Source: Girardinichthys multiradiatus (taxonomy: Eukaryota > Chordata > Actinopteri > Cyprinodontiformes > Goodeidae). From it: 64,000 bases of DNA. Each line of letters opens with the position of its first letter. The first letter of the stretch is position 1. The notes beneath the pieces are model-generated. The model ran no database searches. It saw only the letters and a list, made by a program, of their open reading frames with translations, and was not told where the DNA came from. The translations under genes and the position numbers were made by a program. Below are positions 6,230-61,030 of this stretch, one piece after another. The stretch is taken from NCBI RefSeq assembly GCF_021462225.1, contig NC_061806.1, positions 5,018,734 to 5,082,733 of the forward strand, given 5' to 3'.

Positions 6230-7797
6230 CAGGTCCTTCTCAAAAAATTAGCATATTGTGATAAAGTTCATTATTTTCTATAATGTAATGATGAAAATGT
6301 AATATTCATATATTTTAGATTCATTGCACACTAACTGAAATATTTCAGGTTTTTTATTGTCTTAATACGGATGATTTTGGCATACAGCTCATGAAAACCC
6401 AAAATTCCTATCTCACAAAATTAGCATATCATTAAAAGGGTCTCTAAACGAGCTATGAACCAAATCATCTGAATCAACGAGTTAACTCTAAACACCTGCA
6501 AATGATTCCTGAGGCCTTTAAAACTCCCAGCCTGGTTCATCACTCAAAACCCCAATCATGGGTAAGACTGCCGACCTGACTGCTGTCCAGAAGGCCACTA
6601 TTGACACCCTCAAGGAAGAGGGTAAGACACAGAAAGACATTTCTGAACGAATAGGCTGTTCCCAGAGTGCTGTATCAAGTCACTTCAGTGGGAAGTCTGT
6701 GGGAAGGAAAAAGTGTGGCAGAAAACGCTGCACAACGAGAAGAGGTGACCGGACCCTGAGGAAGATTGTGAAGAAGGGCCGATTCCAGACCTTGGGGGAC
6801 CTGCGGAAGCAGTGGACTGAGTCTGGAGTAGAAACATCCAGAGCCACCGTGCACAGGCGTGTGCAGGAAATGGGCTACAGGTGCTGCATTCCCCAGACCT
6901 GGGCTACAGAGAAGCAGCACTGGACTGTTGCTCAGTGGTCCAAAGTACTTTTTTCGGATGAAAGCAAATTCTGCATGTCATTCGGAAATCAAGGTGCCAA
7001 AGTCTGGAGGAAGACTGGGGAGAAGGAAATGCCAAAATGCCAGAAGTCCAGTGTCAAGTACCCACAGTCAGTGATGGTCTGGGGTGCCGTGTCAGCTGCT
7101 GGTGTTGGTCCACTGTGTTTTATCAAGGGCAGGGTCAATGCAGCTAGCTATCAGGAGATTTTGGAGCACTTCATGCTTCCATCTGCTGAAAAGCTTTATG
7201 GAGATGAAGATTTCATTGTTCAGCACGACCTGGCACCTGCTCACAGTGCCAAAACCACTGGTAAATGGTTTACTGACCATGGTATCACTGTGCTCAATTG
7301 GCCTGCCAACTCTCCTGACCTGAACCCCATAGAGAATCTGTGGGATATTGTGAAGAGAACGTTGAGAGACTCAAGACCCAACACTCTGGATGAGCTAAAG
7401 GCCGCTATCGAAGCATCCTGGGCCTCCATAAGACCTCAGCAGTGCCACAGGCTGATTGCCTCCATGCCACGCCGCATTAAAGCAGTCATTTCTGTCAAAG
7501 GATTCCCAACCAAGTATTGAGTGCATAACTGTACATTATTATTTGAAGGTTGACGTTTTTTGTATTAAAAACACTTTTCTTTTATTGGTCGGATGAAATA
7601 TGCTAATTTTGTGAGATAGGAATTTTGGGTTTTCATGAGCTGTATGCCAAAATCATCCGTATTAAGACAATAAAAGACCTGAAATATTTCAGTTAGTGTG
7701 CAATGAATCTAAAATATATGAATATTAAATTTTCCCCATTACATTATAGAAAATAATGAACTTTATCACAATATGCTAATTTTTTGAGAAGGACCTG
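6230..7797 (+). mobile_element. Tc1-like transposon, family B, copy 1
   Basis: The element is 1568 bp and starts CAGGTCCTTCTCAAAAAATT; its right end is the inverted complement, finishing GAGAAGGACCTG. It is flanked by TA on both sides (6228-6229 and 7798-7799), the hallmark of Tc1/mariner integration. The inverted terminal regions are about 200 bp, with a second inner repeat near 6363-6428 and 7600-7670, giving the IR/DR layout typical of fish Tc1 elements. It encodes a nearly complete transposase and sits against the end of the dead Tc1-A element. Confidence 0.92.
6558..7520 (+). CDS. Tc1/mariner transposase, DD34E, 42-bp deletion
   Basis: This 320-codon open frame encodes the cut-and-paste transposase of the surrounding element. 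Residues 1-120 are the DNA-binding part (KTQKDISERIGCSQSAVSSH helix-turn-helix, then the basic GRKKCGRKRCTTRR linker). The catalytic core has FSDES, QHDLAPAH and NPIENLWD; 34 residues separate the second D from the E. Compared with the sister copy at 14785-15778, 14 residues after CxIPQ are missing in frame, removing a KPLLNQKQRQKHL-like segment just before the catalytic domain. There are no stops. Whether the shortened protein works cannot be told from sequence. The start is the ATG after CCCCAATC, shared by both copies. Confidence 0.9.
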   Translation: MGKTADLTAVQKATIDTLKEEGKTQKDISERIGCSQSAVSSHFSGKSVGRKKCGRKRCTTRRGDRTLRKIVKKGRFQTLGDLRKQWTESGVETSRATVHRRVQEMGYRCCIPQTWATEKQHWTVAQWSKVLFSDESKFCMSFGNQGAKVWRKTGEKEMPKCQKSSVKYPQSVMVWGAVSAAGVGPLCFIKGRVNAASYQEILEHFMLPSAEKLYGDEDFIVQHDLAPAHSAKTTGKWFTDHGITVLNWPANSPDLNPIENLWDIVKRTLRDSRPNTLDELKAAIEASWASIRPQQCHRLIASMPRRIKAVISVKGFPTKY

Positions 7798-14507: not shown

Positions 14508-16106
14508 CAGGTCCTTCTCAAAATATTAGCATATTGTGATAAAGTTCATTATTTTCCATAAGGTAATGATGAAAATTTAACATTCATCTATTTTAGATTC
14601 ATTGCCCACTAACTGAAATATTTCAGGTCTTTTATTGTCTTAATACGGATGATTTTGGCATACAGCTCATGAAAACCCAAAATTCCTATCTCACAAAATT
14701 AGCATATTTCATCCGACCAATAAAAGAAAAGTGTTTTTAATACAAAAAACATCAACCTTCAAATAATCATGTACAGTTATGCACTCAATACTTGGTCGGG
14801 AATCCTTTGGCAGAAATGACTGCTTCAATGCGGCGTGGCATGGAGGCAATCAGCCTGTGGCACTGCTGAGGTCTTATGGAGGCCCAGGATGCTTCGATAG
14901 CGGCCTTTAGCTCATCCAGAGTGTTGGGTCTTGAGTCTCTCAACGTTCTCTTCACAATATCCCACAGATTCTCTATGGGGTTCAGGTCAGAAGAGTTAGC
15001 AGGCTAATTGAGCACAGTGATACCATGGTCAATATACCATTTACCAGTGGTTTTGGCACTGTGAGGAGGTGCCAGGTCGTGCTGAAAAATGAAATCTTCA
15101 TCTCCATAAAGCTTTTCAGCAGATGGAAGCATGAAGTGCTCCAAAATCTCCTGATAGCTAGCTGCATTGACCCTGCCCTTGATAAAACACAGTGGACCAA
15201 CACCAGCAGCTGACACGGCACCCCAGACCATCACTGACTGTGGGTACTTGACACTGGACTTCTGGCATTTTGGCATTTCCTTCTCCCCAGTCTTCCTCCA
15301 GACTCTGGCACCTTGATTTCCGAATGACATGCAGAATTTGCTTTCATCCGAAAAAAGTACTTTGAACCACTGAGCAACAGTCCAGTGCTGCTTCTCTGTA
15401 GCCCAGGTCAGGTGCTTCTGCCGCTGTTTCTGGTTCAAAAGTGGCTTGACCTGGGGAATGCGGCACCTGTAGCCCATTTCCTGCACACGCCTGTGCACGG
15501 TGGCTCTGGATGTTTCTACTCCAGACTCAGTCCACTGCTTCCGCAGGTCCCCCAAGGTCTGGAATCGGCCCTTCTCCACAATCTTCCTCAGGCTCCGGTC
15601 ACCTCTTCTCGTTGTGCAGCGTTTTCTGCCACACTTTTTCCTTCCCACAGACTTCCCACTGAGGTGCCTTGATACAGCACTCTGGGAACAGCCTATTTGT
15701 TCAGAAATGTCTTTCTGTGTCTTACCCTCTTGCTTGAGTGGCCTTCTGGACAGCAGTCAGGTCGGCAGTCTTACCCATGATTGGGGTTTTGAGTGATGAA
15801 CCAGGCTGGGAGTTTTAAAGGCCTCAGGAATCTTTTGCAGGTGTTTAGAGTTAACTCGTTGATTCAGATGATTAGGTTCATAGCTCGTTTAGAGACCCTT
15901 TTAATGATATGCTAATTTTGTGAGATAGGAATTTTGGGTTTTCATGAGCTGTATGCCACAATCATCCGTATTAAGACAATAAAAGACCTGAAATATTTCA
16001 GTTAGTGTGCAATGAATCTAAAATATATGAATGTTAAATTTTCATCATTACATTATGGAAAATAATTAACTTTATCACAATATGCTAATATTTTGAGAAG
16101 GACCTG
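14508..16106 (-). mobile_element. Tc1-like transposon, family B, copy 2
   Basis: The element is 1599 bp with ends CAGGTCCTTCTCAAAATATT and the inverted complement, flanked by TA at 14506-14507 and 16107-16108. It has the same long inner repeats as copy 1 and is nearly identical along its length, but in the opposite orientation about 6.7 kb away. The boundaries are base-exact because both termini are intact. Confidence 0.92.
14785..15778 (-). pseudogene. Tc1/mariner transposase, family B, two lesions
   Basis: The start ATG corresponds to 15778-15776, and the frame should end at the TGA at 14787-14785. Against the open copy at 6558, about 11 bases are missing near codon 18 (after QKAT), shifting frame. 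A tryptophan codon in the NWPANSPDLNP block has become TAG near 15007, upstream of the catalytic E. The central 214 codons (15648-15004) are open and keep the first two catalytic D residues. This copy retains the 14-residue VKPLLNQKQRQKHL segment that copy 1 lacks. Confidence 0.88.
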
Positions 16107-25925: not shown

Positions 25926-25965
25926 TGGCATGCCGTTCAGGAAATTATTTATATTTATATTCAAA

Positions 25966-26443
25966 AATCTGAATATATGGAATGAACCTTGAATATATGG
26001 AATGAAAGTCTGAGTATATGGAATGAAATTCTGAATATATTGAATGAACCTTAAATATATGGAATGAAAGTCTGAATATATGGAATAAACCTTGAATATA
26101 TGGAATGAAAGTCTGAATATATGGAATGAACCTTGAATATATGGAATGAAAGTCTGAATATATGGAATGAAAGTCTGAATATATGGAATGAACCTTGAAT
26201 ATATGGAATGAAAGTCTGAATATATGGAATGAACCTTGAATATATGGAATGAAAGTCTGAATATATTGAATAAATCTTGAATATATGGAATAAAAGTCTG
26301 AATATATGGAATGAACCTTGAATATATGGAATGAAAGTCTGAATATATGGAATGAACCTTGAATATATGGAATGAAAGTCTGAATATATTGAATGAATCT
26401 TGAATATATGGAATGAAAGTCTGAATATATGGAATGAAAGTCG
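25966..26443. repeat. Minisatellite of 20/21-bp alternating units
   Basis: About 23 units of GAATATATGGAATGAA followed by either AGTCT (21-bp form) or CCTT (20-bp form). The two forms mostly alternate, giving a 41-bp higher-order period, with occasional doubling of the AGTCT form. Single-base variants (TTGAATGAA, GAATAAACC) are scattered. A 159-codon minus-strand frame (HSIYSDF repeats) results from the repeat having no stop in that phase; I do not regard it as a gene. Confidence 0.92.
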
Positions 26444-46200: not shown

Positions 46201-47135
46201 TCTCTGACCTTTCTTCAGACATTCAGTGATCTTGTGTCCCTAGTCACCACAGTAGAAGCAAAGGTTAAAGTTGTGTTCTTCAAGCACGTTCAGCCTCTGA
46301 CAACTTAGTGCGACCCAACTGCATTGGTTCAGGATCAGTTGGGGTCTCAGGAGAAGATGGGGTATTTCCATCCAGCATATGAGGAACGGCACCTGTAGAC
46401 AAAAATGCCTGAGGTCCCATATGACTTCTCTCCCTTCTCCTCTCCGTGAGGCAGAGATCAATGCGCGTAGCCAAATCTTCTAACACCTTTAAAGATTTGG
46501 GATAATCGCGGATAGCAAGCTTATCTTTAATGTCCTCATTGAGACATTGCAAAAACACATTCATAAGAGCTTTCTGGTCCCAGTGGCTATCAGTAGCAAG
46601 CAGGTAAAAATCAATTATGTACTACGCCACACTCTGGTTGCCTTGCTTAAGTGACAGTAGCCTCTAGCTGCCTGATGTTCAGGAAGAACAGGGTCAAGTT
46701 TTTGACCCTGTTCTTCCTTATTAGCTCCTTAGTGAATGCAGCATAAGAGAGACATGAAACAGATCTATTTTGCCGCTCTGCGGTGCCCCATTGCTTAGCT
46801 TGGCCTGTTAAAAGTGAAACCATAAAAGCCACCTTAGATCTTTCAGTGGGAATTGACGAGGGCTGGAACTCAAAGTGAATTTCATACTGGGTCAAAAAGG
46901 CTCTGCAATGATCATGATCACCTTTAAACAGTTGAGGAGATGTCAAATGGGGTTCTCTAGGGGTTGTAACAGGAACAGCAGGCCAAGAGGAGGGCTCTGG
47001 GAGCTGCAGAGTCTGAGAAGCGATGTGAGAAGACAGGTCACGTAACATACCCAAAATCTCAGTCATTCCAGCATCAAGTCGGGTGATGGAATTTTCAATG
47101 CCTGTATGCCACTGTTGTACTGGCAAAGGGTCCAT
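46201..47135 (-). pseudogene. Gypsy A gag with CCHC zinc knuckle
   Basis: ATG at 47135 begins MDPLPVQQWHTGIENSITRL; a Gag-like block follows: SPQLFKGDHDHCRAFLTQYE, KVAFMVSLLTGQAKQWGTAE and YAAFTKELIRK. A frameshift near 46650 leads to NVFLQCLNEDIKDKLAIRD, then CFYCGD near 46250 as the first part of a CCHC knuckle. This order (MDPA start, FDGD/FKGD, GxAxxWA, zinc knuckle) is typical of fish chromovirus Gag. At least two frame changes and a stop make it non-functional. Confidence 0.8.
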
Positions 47136-47151
47136 TTTGGCCAGATTTTTT

Positions 47152-47872
47152 TGTAACGGGAGGTTCTGAGGACCCGAAACTTCAGCCAGACAAAACAGAC
47201 ATTCAATTCAAAAGACTTATTAAAAGCTCTGGGAAACGTTCAGAAGGAAACCACCACCAGCGGCAGGCTGAGGAACCTCTGAGGGCAGACAGATAGGTTG
47301 GTGGCTGAACAGAGGGCTGAGAATAATAACAAACTCAGGAGTAAAGCCACTAATCTGTCAGAATCCATGAGTGAATTTCAGCTCCTCAGTGCGGTGGTGA
47401 GGTGACAGCAGGATAACGTCACACGGGCTTTCAGGTTTGTAAACCTATTCAACAGGCAGACTGCGGTGGTCAGGGGCGAAAGCAGGGTCAGAGCCAGGGA
47501 AGCAGAAACAGGAGACAGGATCCGAGTGAGAGGCAGAGCGGCAGTTAGGAGGCATAAGCAAGGTCGGTGTGTAGAAGATAATGAGGTGTCCGATAAGGGC
47601 AAGGCAAGGCAGAGAAATCCGTGAGGCAAAATCGAGATCAGATCAGGCAGGCAGACAAGGAAGGAACACTGGACACTACTCACACAAAGGCTTTTGAAAA
47701 TCTGGCGCTGTTTGTCTGTCAGCTTGCTACTTATAAAGCCAGGTGGAGCAGCAGGCATTTAGGGAGCTGGCTGGGAATGAGCAGGTGAAAGCAATCATGA
47801 TAATAGCTTCAGTGCAGAGATGAGCAGCAGTAACATAGAGATGGTGAAAACATATAGCCCATAATCATGACA
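47152..47872 (-). repeat. 5' LTR of Gypsy A
   Basis: 721 bp on the minus strand, starting TGTCATGATTATGGGC and ending CCTCCCGTTACA. A TATA-like CTTTATAAGT occurs about 120 bases in, and TTTAATAAG lies near the end. Only 16 bases separate the LTR from the gag ATG. Confidence 0.8.
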
Positions 47873-54631: not shown

Positions 54632-56772
54632 TCAGTGTCACATCTGTGTCTTTTTGGGTTTTATTTTTGAGGCAGGCAGGTACAGAACTGATCCCGAGAA
54701 AACCAAGGCAGTGGCAGAGTGTCCTACTCCAACTGATCGCAGGCAACTTCAAAGGTTCTTGGGATTTGCTAATTTTTATAGGAGGTTTATAAGGAACTAC
54801 AGTCAGGTCACTGCACCTCTCACTCAACTCACTTCTGAAAACGTTCCATTGGACTCCTGAGGCAGAAAGGGCATTTGGGGAATTAAAGACTCTATTTTCT
54901 TCAGCACCCATATTGACCCATCCTGATCCATGTGCACAATTTATTGTAGAGGTTGATGCTTCTGACATTGGAGTAGGGGCTATTCTATCTCAATGGTCTC
55001 CTCTGGATGATAAGGTACATCCATGTGCCTATTTTTCTCGTCGCTTGTCTCCAGCAGAGCAAAATTATGATGTGGGCAACCGTGAACTGATAGCCATCAA
55101 GTTGGCGCTTGAGGAATGGCGGCATTGGTTAGAGGGTACTGAAGTCCCTTTTCTCATTTGGACTGATCATAAGAACCTCTCCTACATTCAAAATGCCAAG
55201 AGACTTAACCCCAGACAAGCCCGTTGGTCTCTGTTTTTTGCTCGTTTTCATTTTTCTATCTCCTACAGACCCTGTTCCAAGAACATTAAGCCTGACGCTC
55301 TCTCTCGCCAGTTCTCTCATTCTGACCAACTCAAGACTGAAGCTTCCATCCTACTGGATTCTTGTATTGTGGGCGCCCTCACCTGGGCCATTGAAAAGGA
55401 CATCAGGGAGGCACAGAGGTCCGAACCTGACCCAGGTACTGGCCCAGTGGGCAAGCTGTTCGTTCCCAACTCTGTCATCAATAAAGTTCTGGATTGGGTG
55501 CACAACAATAAATTGACTTGTCATCCTGGGGTGACTCGTATGATCACATTTACCAAAAGGTATTTCTGGTGGCCGACTATGAACCTGAACATTAAAGATT
55601 TTGTTGCAGCTTGTCCCACATGTGCTCGAAACAAGAACACTAATCAACCCCCTGCTGGTCTTCTTCAACCTCTGCCCACCCCTAGCCGCCCCTGGTCCCA
55701 CATTTCCGTTGATTTCATCACTGGTCTCCCGCCATCTGACGGTAACACAGTCATCCTTACTGTTGTTGACAGATTCTCTAAAACAGCCCATTTTGTTCCT
55801 TTATCCAAGCTTCCGTTAGCAATGGAGACTGCCCAACTCTTGGTTCTCCACGTTTTCCGCATCCATGGCATACCTTTGGACATTGTTTCTGACCGAGGCC
55901 CGCTGTTCATCTCGCAAGTTTGGAAGGAGTTTTGCAAAGCTCTTGGTGCCTCCGTAAGTCTTTCGTCTGGATACCACCCCCAATCTAATGGACAGACAGA
56001 AAGATGCAACCAGGAACTTGAAGTCGCCTTGAGGTGCGTAATAAATGACAACCCCTCTTCTTGGTGCAAACATCTCACATGGATCGAATATGCTCATAAC
56101 ACACATACTTCCTCTGCTACTGGTTTGTCCCCCTTTGAGGCTTCACTGGGCTATCTACCCCCGCTGTTTCCCAGTGTTGAATCTGACATCCTGGTCCCCT
56201 CTGTTCAGCATTATGTTTCCAGGTGTCGTAGGATCTGGCAACAGACCAGGAGGACCCTCCTACACACCCTGGAACAAAATAAGAGGTTCGCTAACCATCA
56301 CCGTTCTGCTGCACCTGTCTACCACATCAATCAGAGAGTCTGGCTTTCCACCAGGAATATTAAATTAAAAGATACTCCTAGAAAGTTGGCCCCCCGTTTC
56401 ATTGGCCCTTTTCTCATCGAGAGGATCATCAACCAATCTGCGGTGAGACTCAAACTACCATCTTCCATGCACATTCACCCTACTTTCCATGTTTCCCAGA
56501 TCAAGCCAGTCTCGGAAAGTCTCCCGAGTCCTCCCACCAAGCCCCCTCCTCCTGCTCGACTCATTGATGACCACCCTGCATATACGGTCAATCGTATCCT
56601 GGATGTTCGGCGTAGGGGGCGTGGTTTTCAATATATTGTGGATTGGGCAGGATATGGACCTGAAGAGAGAACCTGGGTTCCCCGTTCTCACATCCTGGAC
56701 CCTGCTCTCATCACGTCCTTTTACAAACGCCATCCTGAAAAGCGTTTTGGATTGCCTGGAGGCAATCTTTGA
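54632..56772 (+). pseudogene. Gypsy B pol: RT end, RNase H, integrase, chromodomain
   Basis: The coding part begins inside reverse transcriptase ([35 protein letters not shown]). After one frameshift near 54840 it stays open from 54913 to 56772 (619 codons). RNase H shows [18 protein letters not shown] and [20 protein letters not shown]. Integrase has a zinc-binding region ending CPTCARNK, then [20 protein letters not shown] and [10 protein letters not shown] with the DDE residues. A C-terminal [19 protein letters not shown] block and a chromodomain ([28 protein letters not shown]) follow; such chromodomains steer integration toward marked chromatin. The 5' LTR, gag, protease and half of RT are missing, so it is defective. 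Confidence 0.9.
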
Positions 56773-57670: not shown

Positions 57671-57734
57671 GTCAGGTATTACTTAATCAACTCAGAGGCA
57701 AGGAACGATACCGAGTCAGTTCTACTTGCGGCAG
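57670..57734 (-). repeat. U5 fragment of an ERV LTR
   Basis: 65 bp matching the last part of the ERV LTR (compare 53909-53974), ending in CCTGACA next to the leader. Upstream it is joined directly to integrase sequence, so U3 and R are missing. Confidence 0.75.
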
Positions 57735-58233
57735 GCCTGTGCTCTGGGGGTGGTAGGAATAGTGGCTGAAAACCCATGGCCGTGGAACATAGAGCTATTG
57801 TGCTGTTAACAAAGTGCATTAAATTGTCTGATCTGATAATATGAGAAATGTCGAATGTGGGGAAGAAATGTGTTACTAAGTTTTTTGCCACTGTAAGTGC
57901 ATCACAGTGTTTGGCTGGGTATATCTCTACCCACCTGGAAAAGGCATCTATGATTACTAAACAGTATTTCTTCCTTTGTGACCATGATAGTTCAATAAAA
58001 TCCATATGTATGGTATGGAACGGATGTTCTGCTAGTGGGAATTGACCTCTTTTGGGCCTCATGTTTCCCTGTGGGTTGTGTTTACAACAAATATTGCATG
58101 CCCTGCAAAGGTTTTTTGCGTAGTCTGAAAAATGTATAGTATAGAATTGTTGGTTTACTATATGTTCCATTCCTCTTCTTGACACATGGGTTTTCCCATG
58201 GGTCACTAAAGTAGTATTGGTTTATTTTCTCAA
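57735..58233 (-). pseudogene. Retroviral integrase fragment
   Basis: The minus frame shows a zinc-binding region with two His (THGKTHVSRRGMEHIVNQQF) and two Cys (LCRACNICCKHN), then the catalytic domain start HTIHMDFIELSWSQ (first D) and the IIRSDN block (second D). The third acidic residue and C-terminal domain are absent because the frame runs into the U5 fragment. Style (GxFPLxExPFxxxxMDF, YCLVIIDAFSRWVE) is that of fish gamma/epsilon-like ERVs. It is defective; described only. Confidence 0.8.
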
Positions 58234-58848
58234 TATTACGAATCAGAAAAAGGTGGACCCAAGATTCAGCCAGACACAGTACTGAAAGTTTAAAAGGTTT
58301 ATTCAGCCACAGAAAAACGTCACACAGGTAACACTCCTCACAGCTTCCAGGAATCACTGCTTTTGTCTTGAGTGGAACTTGAAACCCAGAGGGAAAACCT
58401 CAATGGGCGGCAGGCGGTGATCTCCACAGCACAGGTAAGAAGTGACTCCAGGCTGAATAATCCGAGGGCTAGGCTGGCTCAATAATCCAAGGACAGAAAC
58501 AGGGTCAATGATCGGAACAAGAGACGTCAGGCAAGGGACAGGCAGAGGCATAAACCAGATGCAGGAAAGAAGGTCAAAACCAAAATCCAAATAGTCCGAC
58601 AGGGAGCAGGCAGAGGCATAAATCCAGAAGGCAAGGTTAGGCCAAGAACAATGATCAGACAGGAAGGAACGCTCTACTCACACAATGGCTTTCAAAAATC
58701 TGGCACCGTCTGCTTGTCAGAGTCGGTATATATCAGGGAAGACACAGGTGTATAGCATGCCACAGATTGCACTACACTGCAGCAGCCACCAGGTCTGCTG
58801 ATTGCAGCCAGGGAGACAGGGTAGAGCAGACGTGCCAGAATCATAACA
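58234..58848 (-). repeat. LTR of Gypsy C
   Basis: About 615 bp, reading TGTTATGATTCTGGCACG leftward from 58848 to about 58234. It has a TATA-type GATATATACCGAC, and CTGAATAAACCTTT near 58300 as polyadenylation signal. It lies directly downstream of the Gypsy C integrase end, so it is that element's 3' LTR. Its distal edge abuts retroviral integrase sequence. Confidence 0.75.
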
Positions 58849-59221
58849 TTAAATGGTAGATGTCATTTGTTTTTACAGCTCCAGGTCGGGGCTCCACAAA
58901 GGGCTTGACCTGAGAAACATGGAACGTGGGGTGAATCCTCAAAGAGTTGGGTAATCTCAGCCGTACAGCGACAGGGTTGAAGATCTTGGAAATTGGGAAA
59001 TGTCTAACAAATCGGGGTGCCAACTTCCGGGATTCTACCCCTAATGGTAGGTCCTTTGCAGAAAGCCAAACTTTCTGCCCCACCTGGTACTTAGGGGCAG
59101 GGGTCTGTCTCTGGTTGGCCGTTCTTGAATGAATCAGTGACATTCTGATCATCGACCTCCTGGCCTTTCTCCATATTCTTTGGCACCTTAGGGCATCGTT
59201 CCTACTCCTGACCTCATTCTC
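58849..59221 (-). pseudogene. Gypsy C integrase C-terminal part
   Basis: Minus frame: [57 protein letters not shown] and [18 protein letters not shown]. This is the last part of a fish Gypsy pol, after the catalytic core. No chromodomain follows; the frame ends close to the 3' LTR. Upstream the frame continues without a break into myosin sequence at the GAGAATGAGGT word (59211-59221). Confidence 0.85.
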
Positions 59222-59655
59222 TGCAGTTTTCTTACCCTTCTCCAGTTCATGAATTGTCTTTCCTGTTTCACTAATATTCTCAGTCAAATCACTTATTTCC
59301 TGTTGCAGGTTCTTGTTCTCCCTCTTCAGGGTATCCAGGTGGCCCAGAGCTTCTTCATAGGAGTTTTTCATTTTGAACATCTCTGTGTTCAAAGCAAGTG
59401 CCTCCTTCAGAGCTCCTTCCAGCTCGACCTGACTCTCTTCATACTTCTGCTTCCACTCTGCAAGAACCTTGTCAAAGTTCCTCTGCTACTTGTACAGGTT
59501 TGCAGTGGAGGTCAATCATCAAGACCTCCACTTCACCCTGTAGCCTCTGTTTGGTCTTCTCCAGAGAGGCACATTTCACATTCACGGCCTCGACGGACTC
59601 TTCCGCATTCTGAAGACGCTGGGCAAGCTTTTTCTTGGCCTCCTCGAGCTCCTCA
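59222..59655 (-). pseudogene. Captured myosin heavy chain rod fragment inside Gypsy C
   Basis: About 434 bp encode part of the coiled-coil rod of a striated-muscle myosin heavy chain: [39 protein letters not shown], then [35 protein letters not shown] and [16 protein letters not shown] to [15 protein letters not shown]. The heptad pattern and order match sarcomeric myosin throughout. No intron interrupts it, so it came from spliced RNA. A deletion of about 20 bases after LMID shifts frame, and AAG became TAG at 59486-59488, so no long myosin peptide is made. Both ends join Gypsy pol within the word GAGAATGAGGT. It takes the place of RT, RNase H and most of integrase. Confidence 0.88.
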
Positions 59656-59950
59656 ACCTCATTCTCCACAATGACCTCTGTAGCAGCAGACAAAAGGCAG
59701 TCAGCGGAACATGACTCAGACCAACCCAGAACTTGTTTTCTCTTCCAGTCAATGTGAGGGTTGTGTTTCTGCAACCAGGAGGCCCCTAGGACAACAGGAA
59801 GTTCAGGTGAATTTATGATCATGAAGGTTACATTCTCTTGATGATTACCTCCAACTGTTAACGTAATCTCCTCCGTCTTGAGGTGGGAATTGTCCATGCT
59901 GTGACCATCCAATGCTAGCACTTTACGTGTGTCAACTGACGGAATGAGCT
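59656..59950 (-). pseudogene. Gypsy C protease region
   Basis: Minus frame: [55 protein letters not shown] and [17 protein letters not shown]. These are the distal half of a Gypsy aspartic protease and the linker that normally leads into reverse transcriptase. The DSGA catalytic part and gag are missing; an inverted LTR begins at 59953. The frame continues open into the myosin fragment. Confidence 0.82.
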
Positions 59951-59952
59951 TT

Positions 59953-60234
59953 TGTTATGATTCTGGCACGTCTGCTCTACCCTTTCTCCCTGGCTGCAAT
60001 CAGCAGATGAGATGCACCTGGTGGCTGCTGCAGTGCAGTGCAATCTGTGTCATACCAAGCACCTGTCTTCCCTGATATATACCGACTCTGACAAGCAGAC
60101 GGTGCCAGATTTTGAAAGCCATTGTGTGAGTAGATATCCAGCGTTCCTTCCTGTCTGATCATTGTTCTTGACCTTGCCTTGCCTTTTGGATTTATGCCTC
60201 TGCCTCTCCCTGTCGGACTATTTGGATTTTGGTT
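59953..60234 (+). repeat. Gypsy C-type LTR fragment, inverted relative to 58234
   Basis: Starts TGTTATGATTCTGGCACG on the plus strand and follows the LTR at 58848-58234 for about 280 bp with small indels, then stops at TTTGGATTTTGGTT where LINE sequence begins. It is oriented opposite to the internal Gypsy C region next to it, so it is not that region's normal 5' LTR. Confidence 0.8.
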
Positions 60235-61030
60235 GTCGACCTTGTTTCCGACATCAAATCCTACCTGAAACTGCTGGCTAAGGATAAGAGTAAATACAGT
60301 AAGAGTGTTATTAATGCTGGTGGTAATGACACCCGGTTACGTCAATCAGAGGTCACCAAAGTTAGTGTTGCTTTGGTGTGTAAGTTTGCCAAAACAATGT
60401 CGGACTCCGTAATTTTCTCTGGTCCCCTCCCCGATCTGACCAGTGACGACATGTTTAGCCGCATGCTGTCATTCAACCGCTGGCTGTCTAGATGGTGTCC
60501 AGAAAACAATGTGGGTTACATTGATAATTGGTGAACATTTGGGGAAAACCTGGTCTGATCCGGACAGACGGCATCCATCCCACTTTGGATGGAGCAGCTC
60601 TTCTTTCTAGGAATCTGGCCAAATTTATTAGTTCTCCAAAACTCTGACAACCCATGGTTCAGACCAGGAAGCAGTGTTATAGTTTAACACTCCTCTCTGC
60701 AGCTTCTGTACTGCTACCCACCCATTACCCTATTAAGACAGTGACTCGCCCATGGCCAAATTTTAATAGATTAAAAAATAATCTAAAAGGAGGAAATCAG
60801 GAAAATCTCATAAAAATAAACACAACTCAGACTAAAAAGAAAAATATAACAATTAAATGTGGCTTACTGAACATAAGATTTCTCTCTTGAAAGACTTTGC
60901 TAGTTAGTGACCTGATTTGTGACAATCAGATTGATTTATTTTGCCTCACAGAAACCTGGCTGCAGCAAGAGGATTATGTTACTATAAATGAGTCAACTCC
61001 TACTAATTATTTAAATTTTTCTGAACCAAT
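60235..61030 (+). pseudogene. CR1/L2-type LINE: SGNH esterase ORF1 and endonuclease start
   Basis: The first frame (through 60534) gives NAGGNDTRLRQSEVTKVS, MSDSVIFSGPLPDLTSDDMF and FNRWLSRWCPENNVGYIDNW. These are the GxND block and later parts of the SGNH-type esterase found in ORF1 of CR1/L2 LINEs. A stop replaces the expected W/R after DNW. After a non-coding linker, 60870-61020 gives LLVSDLICDNQIDLFCLTET and WLQQEDYVTINESTPTN, the start of an APE endonuclease with its metal-binding glutamate. The copy is cut off near 61030. Both frames are broken. Confidence 0.75.

What the first reader, a model, noticed from the sequence alone, without database searches (positions are those of the whole stretch)
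58848..59950. Gypsy retrotransposon carrying a processed myosin heavy chain fragment
Seen: one minus-strand frame passes from Gypsy protease into about 434 bp of sarcomeric myosin rod sequence and then into the Gypsy integrase C-terminus. The myosin part has no introns, and RT, RNase H and most of integrase are absent. Established: retroviruses and a few plant LTR elements (for example maize Bs1) transduce host mRNA by template switching during reverse transcription. Inference: a co-packaged muscle myosin mRNA was copied into this Gypsy element. I know of no well-described case of this kind in a fish Gypsy element.
Basis: partly seen in the sequence, partly recalled or inferred. Interest (0 to 1): 0.93.

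Follow-up and report, generated by a model that had tools for sequence, protein, structure and literature searches.

The report
Fish jumping gene carrying muscle myosin
In a Mexican livebearing fish, a retrovirus-like jumping element once copied part of a muscle myosin messenger RNA into itself, and the hybrid then spread to dozens of places in the genome; the piece seen here is one broken copy.

Summary
The window lies in a goodeid fish genome (Girardinichthys multiradiatus by equal contig lengths). The myosin-Gypsy chimera is a multicopy family: 49 loci (window included) carry its 3' junction, 55 its 5' junction, 42 both; reversed-pattern controls gave 0. The best donor is a sarcomeric MYH gene on contig C19: five exons or exon parts match a chimera copy at 96.6-100%, and introns of 82, 78 and 112 bp are precisely absent. 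Gypsy relatives in the same genome keep the RT, RNase H and integrase stretch that myosin replaced. The three founder junctions share 4-7 nt and keep frame, as expected of template switching. Copies reaching a 3' LTR show 5-bp target duplications. The myosin part evolves close to neutrally, so it is most likely a passenger mobilised in trans. Corrections: this copy is not one frame; its protease-myosin junction is a later deletion; an inverted LTR fragment stands where 5' LTR and gag should be. The kind is known (maize Bs1, LTR-mediated retrocopies); a vertebrate family amplified this far appears new.

The parts
59953..60249 (+). Inverted fragment of the family's LTR (LTR positions 1-285, 89% to the right-hand LTR), joined by its exact terminus to the protease sequence in place of 5' LTR and gag
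59649..59952 (-). Gypsy protease C-terminal part and start of the linker between protease and RT
   Evidence: 89-98% over up to 302 bp in other copies; weak Pfam aspartyl-protease matches
59649..59655 (-). Secondary deletion junction of this copy: Gypsy GTTGAGGAG / myosin ACTGAGGAG, 7-nt microhomology; most class 1 copies read keep about 240-250 bp more here
59190..59655 (-). Captured sarcomeric myosin heavy chain rod, intronless; 17 bp deleted near 59505 (frameshift)
   Evidence: 93.5-100% to parts of five exons of the C19 MYH gene (L037), skipping introns of 82, 78 and 112 bp
59212..59216 (-). Internal jump from exon 4 to exon 5 of the mRNA at the 4-nt microhomology TGAG; seen in 20 of 20 other copies read
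59186..59196 (-). Founder 3' junction from myosin to integrase (shared TGCCCT, then AGG)
   Evidence: 49 loci including this one; donor sequences of both sides
58881..59189 (-). Gypsy integrase C-terminal SH3-like part, ending at the family's 3' breakpoint hot spot; chromodomain missing
   Evidence: Pfam SH3_Tf2-1 58 bits
58849..58880 (-). 32-bp stretch of unknown origin between the breakpoint and the LTR
58234..58848 (-). 3' LTR (615 bp, TGTTATGATT ... ATTCGTAATA); its right end was set by eye
   Evidence: 88.9-93.9% in the full-length alignments to LTRs of other copies

Best explanation
A Ty3/Gypsy LTR retrotransposon of goodeid fishes was reverse-transcribed in the presence of a spliced MYH mRNA. 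Minus-strand synthesis left the Gypsy RNA in the integrase gene (TGCCCT), copied MYH exon 5, skipped back to exon 4 (TGAG), copied exons 4 to 1, and returned to Gypsy RNA just before the RT domain (AAGGCCA). The product lost RT, RNase H and most of integrase but kept LTRs, gag, protease and the integrase C-terminus. It then multiplied as a non-autonomous element, using proteins of autonomous relatives, in at least two subfamilies. The window holds one decayed copy. Shown: junctions, a donor gene, Gypsy relatives, missing introns, target duplications, copy number, near-neutral evolution of the myosin part. Inferred: co-packaging, order of the switches, mobilisation in trans.
For: Donor MYH exons 96.6, 96.8, 97.0, 100 and 96.8% to copy L010, the last over 31 bases; GT-AG introns of 82, 78 and 112 bp absent. 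Two Gypsy loci (L039, L040) align on both sides of the replaced region and hold about 2.2 kb of pol between; in L039 protease, RT, RNase H and integrase match Pfam; L040 also has the LTR at 95-97%. Microhomology AAGGCCA, TGAG and TGCCCT. 3' junction in 20 of 20 copies read, 5' junction in 19 of 20 (L016 has a deletion there). Genome-wide: 42 loci with both, 7 with 3' only, 13 with 5' only, controls 0. Of 8 copies with a 3' LTR end, 5 have an exact 5-bp target duplication, 2 one with a mismatch, 1 is offset by a base. Differences from the donor summed over 20 copies: 104 synonymous, 252 nonsynonymous, 8 stop; neutral expectation 100, 249 and 15. Class 2 features recur in a Goodea atripinnis protein (P0032; by eye).
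Against: No particle, RNA or mobility data. Copies differ from the donor gene by 2.4-4.4%, so a lost or unread MYH paralogue could be the true donor; rod exons were read from genes on C19, C24 and C6 only (the C20 stretch and two C19 stretches gave no match). The 5' switch lies at a MYH exon boundary, which a chimeric spliced transcript could also give. 12 of the first 20 copies lack 3' LTR and target duplication, so not every copy is a textbook insertion. Stop changes are about half the neutral number (8 against 15), though changes shared by copies are counted repeatedly. L039 and L040 are themselves broken; no intact autonomous copy was looked for.
Confidence: 0.93

Rival explanations
1. A Gypsy copy inserted in or next to the MYH gene was transcribed into a chimeric RNA joined to MYH exons by splicing; only the 3' switch happened in reverse transcription (the read-through model for retroviral oncogene capture, recalled).
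For: The 5' switch lies at the MYH exon boundary AAG|GCC.
Against: The Gypsy side reads CAAG|GCCACAG in both relatives read, with no GT donor. The chimera has ATTAAG as in the upstream MYH exon, where the two relatives have ATCAAG, so the switch probably lies inside that exon; this rests on one base, and a neighbouring base of the chimera fits neither parent.
Confidence: 0.1
2. A LINE-made MYH processed pseudogene was later merged with a Gypsy element by insertion or recombination at the DNA level.
For: Such retrocopies are intronless too.
Against: The junctions lie inside pol on both sides with microhomology, no LTR or poly(A) adjoins the myosin part, and all three junctions keep the reading frame.
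Confidence: 0.02
3. Assembly or annotation artefact.
For: The window copy alone is short and broken.
Against: About 62 loci on 22 contigs share one or both junctions; the 20 copies read in full have different flanks; proteins from two other goodeid genera carry parts of the family.
Confidence: 0.005

Closest known systems
Bs1 LTR retroelement of maize
   Same: LTR element carrying fragments of host genes captured through RNA, with a hybrid open reading frame (PMC5408686 and PMC13317346, passages read)
   Different: Plant element with three different captured genes; here a vertebrate Gypsy element with one captured gene, multiplied to about 60 loci, with donor gene and Gypsy relatives in the same genome. 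Bs1's copy number was not looked up
LTR-mediated retrocopies of metazoans (Tan et al. 2016)
   Same: Template switching at microsimilarity between LTR-element RNA and cellular mRNA; reported from zebrafish among others
   Different: Known to me only through the citing review (the paper itself is not held). Whether any of those formed a multiplying element family I could not check
Acutely transforming retroviruses with captured oncogenes (recalled)
   Same: Spliced host mRNA inserted in place of replication genes; replication depends on a helper
   Different: No env was seen in the copies; the captured piece is a near-neutral structural fragment
Chromodomain-containing Ty3/Gypsy elements of fishes (for example Poecilia formosa P0003)
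   Same: Integrase C-terminus homologous, chromodomain next to it as in copy L011
   Different: No myosin; P0003 holds only the integrase end and chromodomain

Membership tests
Ty3/Gypsy LTR retrotransposon | Two direct LTRs with a short target duplication | tested here: met
   8 of 20 family copies have a 3' LTR end, with a 5-bp duplication exact in 5, one mismatch in 2, offset in 1. Not met by 12 of 20 copies nor by the window copy, whose LTR pieces are inverted
Ty3/Gypsy LTR retrotransposon | gag, protease, integrase C-terminus, chromodomain of this superfamily | tested here: met
   L024: Retrotrans_gag and Ty3_capsid above cutoff, RVP_2 above cutoff; L011: Chromo above cutoff; window: SH3_Tf2-1
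Autonomous Gypsy element | RT, RNase H and integrase core present | tested here: not met
   Replaced by myosin; present in relative L039
LTR-mediated host mRNA transduction | Intronless host sequence inside the element, with a donor gene | tested here: met
LTR-mediated host mRNA transduction | Microhomology between element and mRNA at the junctions | tested here: met
   7, 4 and 6 nt; no test of how often chance gives this
LTR-mediated host mRNA transduction | Host mRNA packaged with element RNA | not testable with these tools
   needs particles or RNA
LINE-made processed pseudogene | Poly(A) tail and target duplications around the retrocopy itself | tested here: not met
   Myosin ends abut Gypsy pol on both sides

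The most novel reading that the evidence does not exclude
The fusion of Gag-protease to a myosin coiled-coil rod may have helped the founder spread, for example by promoting self-association of Gag, so that a muscle protein domain became a working part of a selfish element. All three founder junctions keep the frame (1 in 27 by chance), two of 20 copies are still open from gag into the integrase part (one of them with the 5' junction deleted), stop changes are half the neutral number, and 31 exact 3'-junction matches stand against 8 matches to Gypsy relatives in the same search (that pattern undercounts relatives). Against it: amino-acid changes are not held back, and frameshifted copies are common.
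Probability: 0.08. Interest if true: 0.85.

Novelty: new variant of a known kind. Interest (0 to 1): 0.62.

Why it matters
It gives a vertebrate example in which the pieces of a host-gene transduction can be read in one genome: a donor gene with introns, Gypsy relatives, the junctions, and dozens of descendant copies. That makes the order of template switches and the fate of a captured gene testable. It also suggests that several database entries named myosin heavy chain in this fish are transposon copies.

Tried and rejected
Search of viral contigs with the chimeric frame: 15 pattern matches, none confirmed. Rfam: no match at gathering thresholds. Purifying selection on amino acids of the myosin part: not seen. 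A single frame in the window copy: rejected (17-bp deletion). MYH genes on C24, C6 and two others on C19 as donors fit worse over the whole length, though one C19 gene matches as well in the first two exons; the C20 stretch and two misplaced C19 stretches gave no match. Autointegration of the element's own LTR as the cause of the inverted LTR could not be separated from insertion of a second copy, because the far side is cut off at 60249 by other sequence (LINE-like by eye). I did not date the capture in years. Nine paper searches listed no account of a myosin-carrying Gypsy element by title or abstract start; the library holds open-licence papers only, and apart from three papers read in passages none was opened.

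Full report
What is in the window. On the minus strand, 59952-58881 runs from the end of a Gypsy protease through myosin rod into the integrase C-terminal SH3-like domain. To its right lies a 615-bp LTR (58848-58234); to its left, in inverted orientation, lie the first 285 bp of the same kind of LTR (59953-60249), joined at its exact terminus to the protease sequence. The copy is not in one frame: a 17-bp deletion near 59505 shifts the frame inside the myosin part.

It is a family. A search of the window's own genome (1.15 Gb, 72 contigs) gave 79 matches with 40 of 1034 candidates scored. Pattern searches with up to three mismatches found the 3' junction pattern 57 times. I class 49 of these as chimera and 8 as lacking the myosin side, by their letters; one of the 8 (C15:6054619) has the 5' junction 1029 bases upstream and may be a recombinant. 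The 5' junction was found 55 times; reversed-pattern controls gave 0. 42 loci have both, 7 only the 3' (the window among them) and 13 only the 5' junction: about 62 loci on 22 contigs. Two pairs on C24 and C25 at equal spacing may be alleles. The distance between the junctions falls into two groups, 12 loci at 397-406 bases and 30 at 546-710, most near 660: class 2, with a further deletion inside the myosin part, and class 1.

Anatomy. In 20 copies fetched (16 of class 1, 4 of class 2), where the parts are kept the order is 5' LTR, gag, protease, start of the linker to RT, myosin, integrase C-terminus, and in four copies the chromodomain region and a 3' LTR. One copy (L018) shows almost no 5' LTR. 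Pfam finds Retrotrans_gag, Ty3_capsid and RVP_2 in L024 and Chromo in L011. Eight of the 20 reach a 3' LTR end; five have an exact 5-bp target duplication, two have one mismatch, one is offset by a base. LTR pairs of these eight differ at 1.6-4.5% of sites and the tree of copies is star-like apart from the class 2 branch, which suggests a burst. Two of 20 copies, L016 (846 aa) and L024 (838 aa), are open in one frame from before gag into the integrase part; L024 shifts frame near its end and L016 lacks the 5' junction by a short deletion.

Donor gene. MYH rod exons were read from genes located through the myosin head family. One gene on C19 (L037) matches copy L010 over five exons or exon parts at 96.6, 96.8, 97.0, 100 and 96.8%; the other genes read fall to 77-90% in part. 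Its four complete exons are 197, 184, 166 and 125 bp, separated by GT-AG introns of 82, 78 and 112 bp that are cleanly absent from the chimera. The window copy itself crosses all three.

Gypsy relatives. Loci L039 and L040 align with the chimera up to the 5' junction and from the 3' junction on, with about 2.2 kb of pol between. L039 holds protease, RT, RNase H, integrase zinc finger, core and SH3 in separate broken frames; L040 was scanned for its integrase only. L040 has the LTR at 95-97%; none was found in the L039 stretch.

Junctions. 5': Gypsy AATCAAGGCCACAG, MYH mRNA AATTAAGGCCAAGAAC (shared AAGGCCA). Internal: exon 4 AATGAG and exon 5 CTGAG (shared TGAG). 3': Gypsy GGCTGCCCTAAGG, MYH GATGCCCTGAGG (shared TGCCCT, then AGG). 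All three keep the reading frame.

Function. Against the donor gene, the 20 copies show 104 synonymous, 252 nonsynonymous and 8 stop changes in sum; the neutral expectation is 100, 249 and 15. Changes shared by copies are counted once per copy, so these are not independent; the shortage of stops is a result against pure neutrality, the ratio of the other two classes is for it. Changes shared between class 1 copies show no clear codon-position bias in the myosin part (7, 9 and 11 at positions 1-3) and at most a weak one in gag (19, 14, 25). The myosin part therefore looks like a passenger, and mobilisation in trans is the most likely mode; this is inference.

Spread. Among the proteins listed by three database searches, the 3' junction was seen in one, of G. 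multiradiatus (P0001; the best 120 of 282, 194 and 546 hits were listed). A Goodea atripinnis protein (P0032) carries the 5' junction and the class 2 deletion, and a Xenoophorus captivus protein (P0126) shares class 1 changes (by eye). All three species are Goodeidae. Length ranges, word filters and capped lists limit these searches, so absence elsewhere is weakly supported. The species name of the window rests on four equal contig lengths (53,524,953; 50,015,724; 52,235,030; 51,973,169).

Novelty. Capture of host mRNA by LTR elements is known from maize Bs1 and from metazoans including zebrafish (PMC5408686 and PMC13317346, passages read; Tan et al. 2016 not held). New here, as far as nine searches of an open-licence library show by listing, is a vertebrate Gypsy family carrying a muscle myosin fragment and multiplied to dozens of loci.

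Noticed in passing
58881 in the window; L009-L028 and L041-L060 near the end of the integrase part: 3' breakpoint hot spot: copies stop within a few bases of GAGCCCCGACTTGG. In the first 20, 12 pass into other DNA without 3' LTR, 4 into the LTR at positions 1-301, 4 are complete. In 20 more, 9 end there without LTR, 4 pass into the LTR, 1 has other DNA before an LTR, 2 reach chromodomain and LTR, 1 is unclear, 3 have no match in the stretch. The Gypsy relatives L039 and L040 break there too. Copies L011, L014 and L023 carry a C-rich stretch just after it whose other strand could form a G-quadruplex; a stalled plus strand is a guess.
   Followed up: partly
G000:C15:2322315-2324348 (outside the window): A myosin head match over the whole domain in a single open frame of 1952 aa, so an apparently intronless myosin gene.
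   Followed up: no
P0001, P0122, P0123, P0125, P0006: Five database proteins of G. multiradiatus named myosin heavy chain that look, by sequence, like pieces of this transposon family.
   Followed up: partly
L019, L021, L022, L023, L028 (myosin part): The same frame slip (frame ending DVQNEKLL) occurs in copies of both classes and, with another ending, in a Goodea protein (P0131), so it is recurrent or passed by recombination between copies.
   Followed up: no
G000:C15:6053590-6054648: 5' myosin junction followed 1029 bases later by a 3' flank without the myosin letters: possible recombinant of chimera and Gypsy relative.
   Followed up: no
54793-56772 (+), 46647-47207 (-), 57679-58221 (-): Other retroelement remains in the window: a Gypsy with RNase H, integrase and chromodomain in a 659-aa open frame, a gag-like frame (by eye), and an integrase core of another LTR element.
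   Followed up: no
6522-7520 (+), 15004-15756 (-); 25964-26442: Two Tc1-like transposase frames (named by eye) and a 41-bp tandem repeat array.
   Followed up: no
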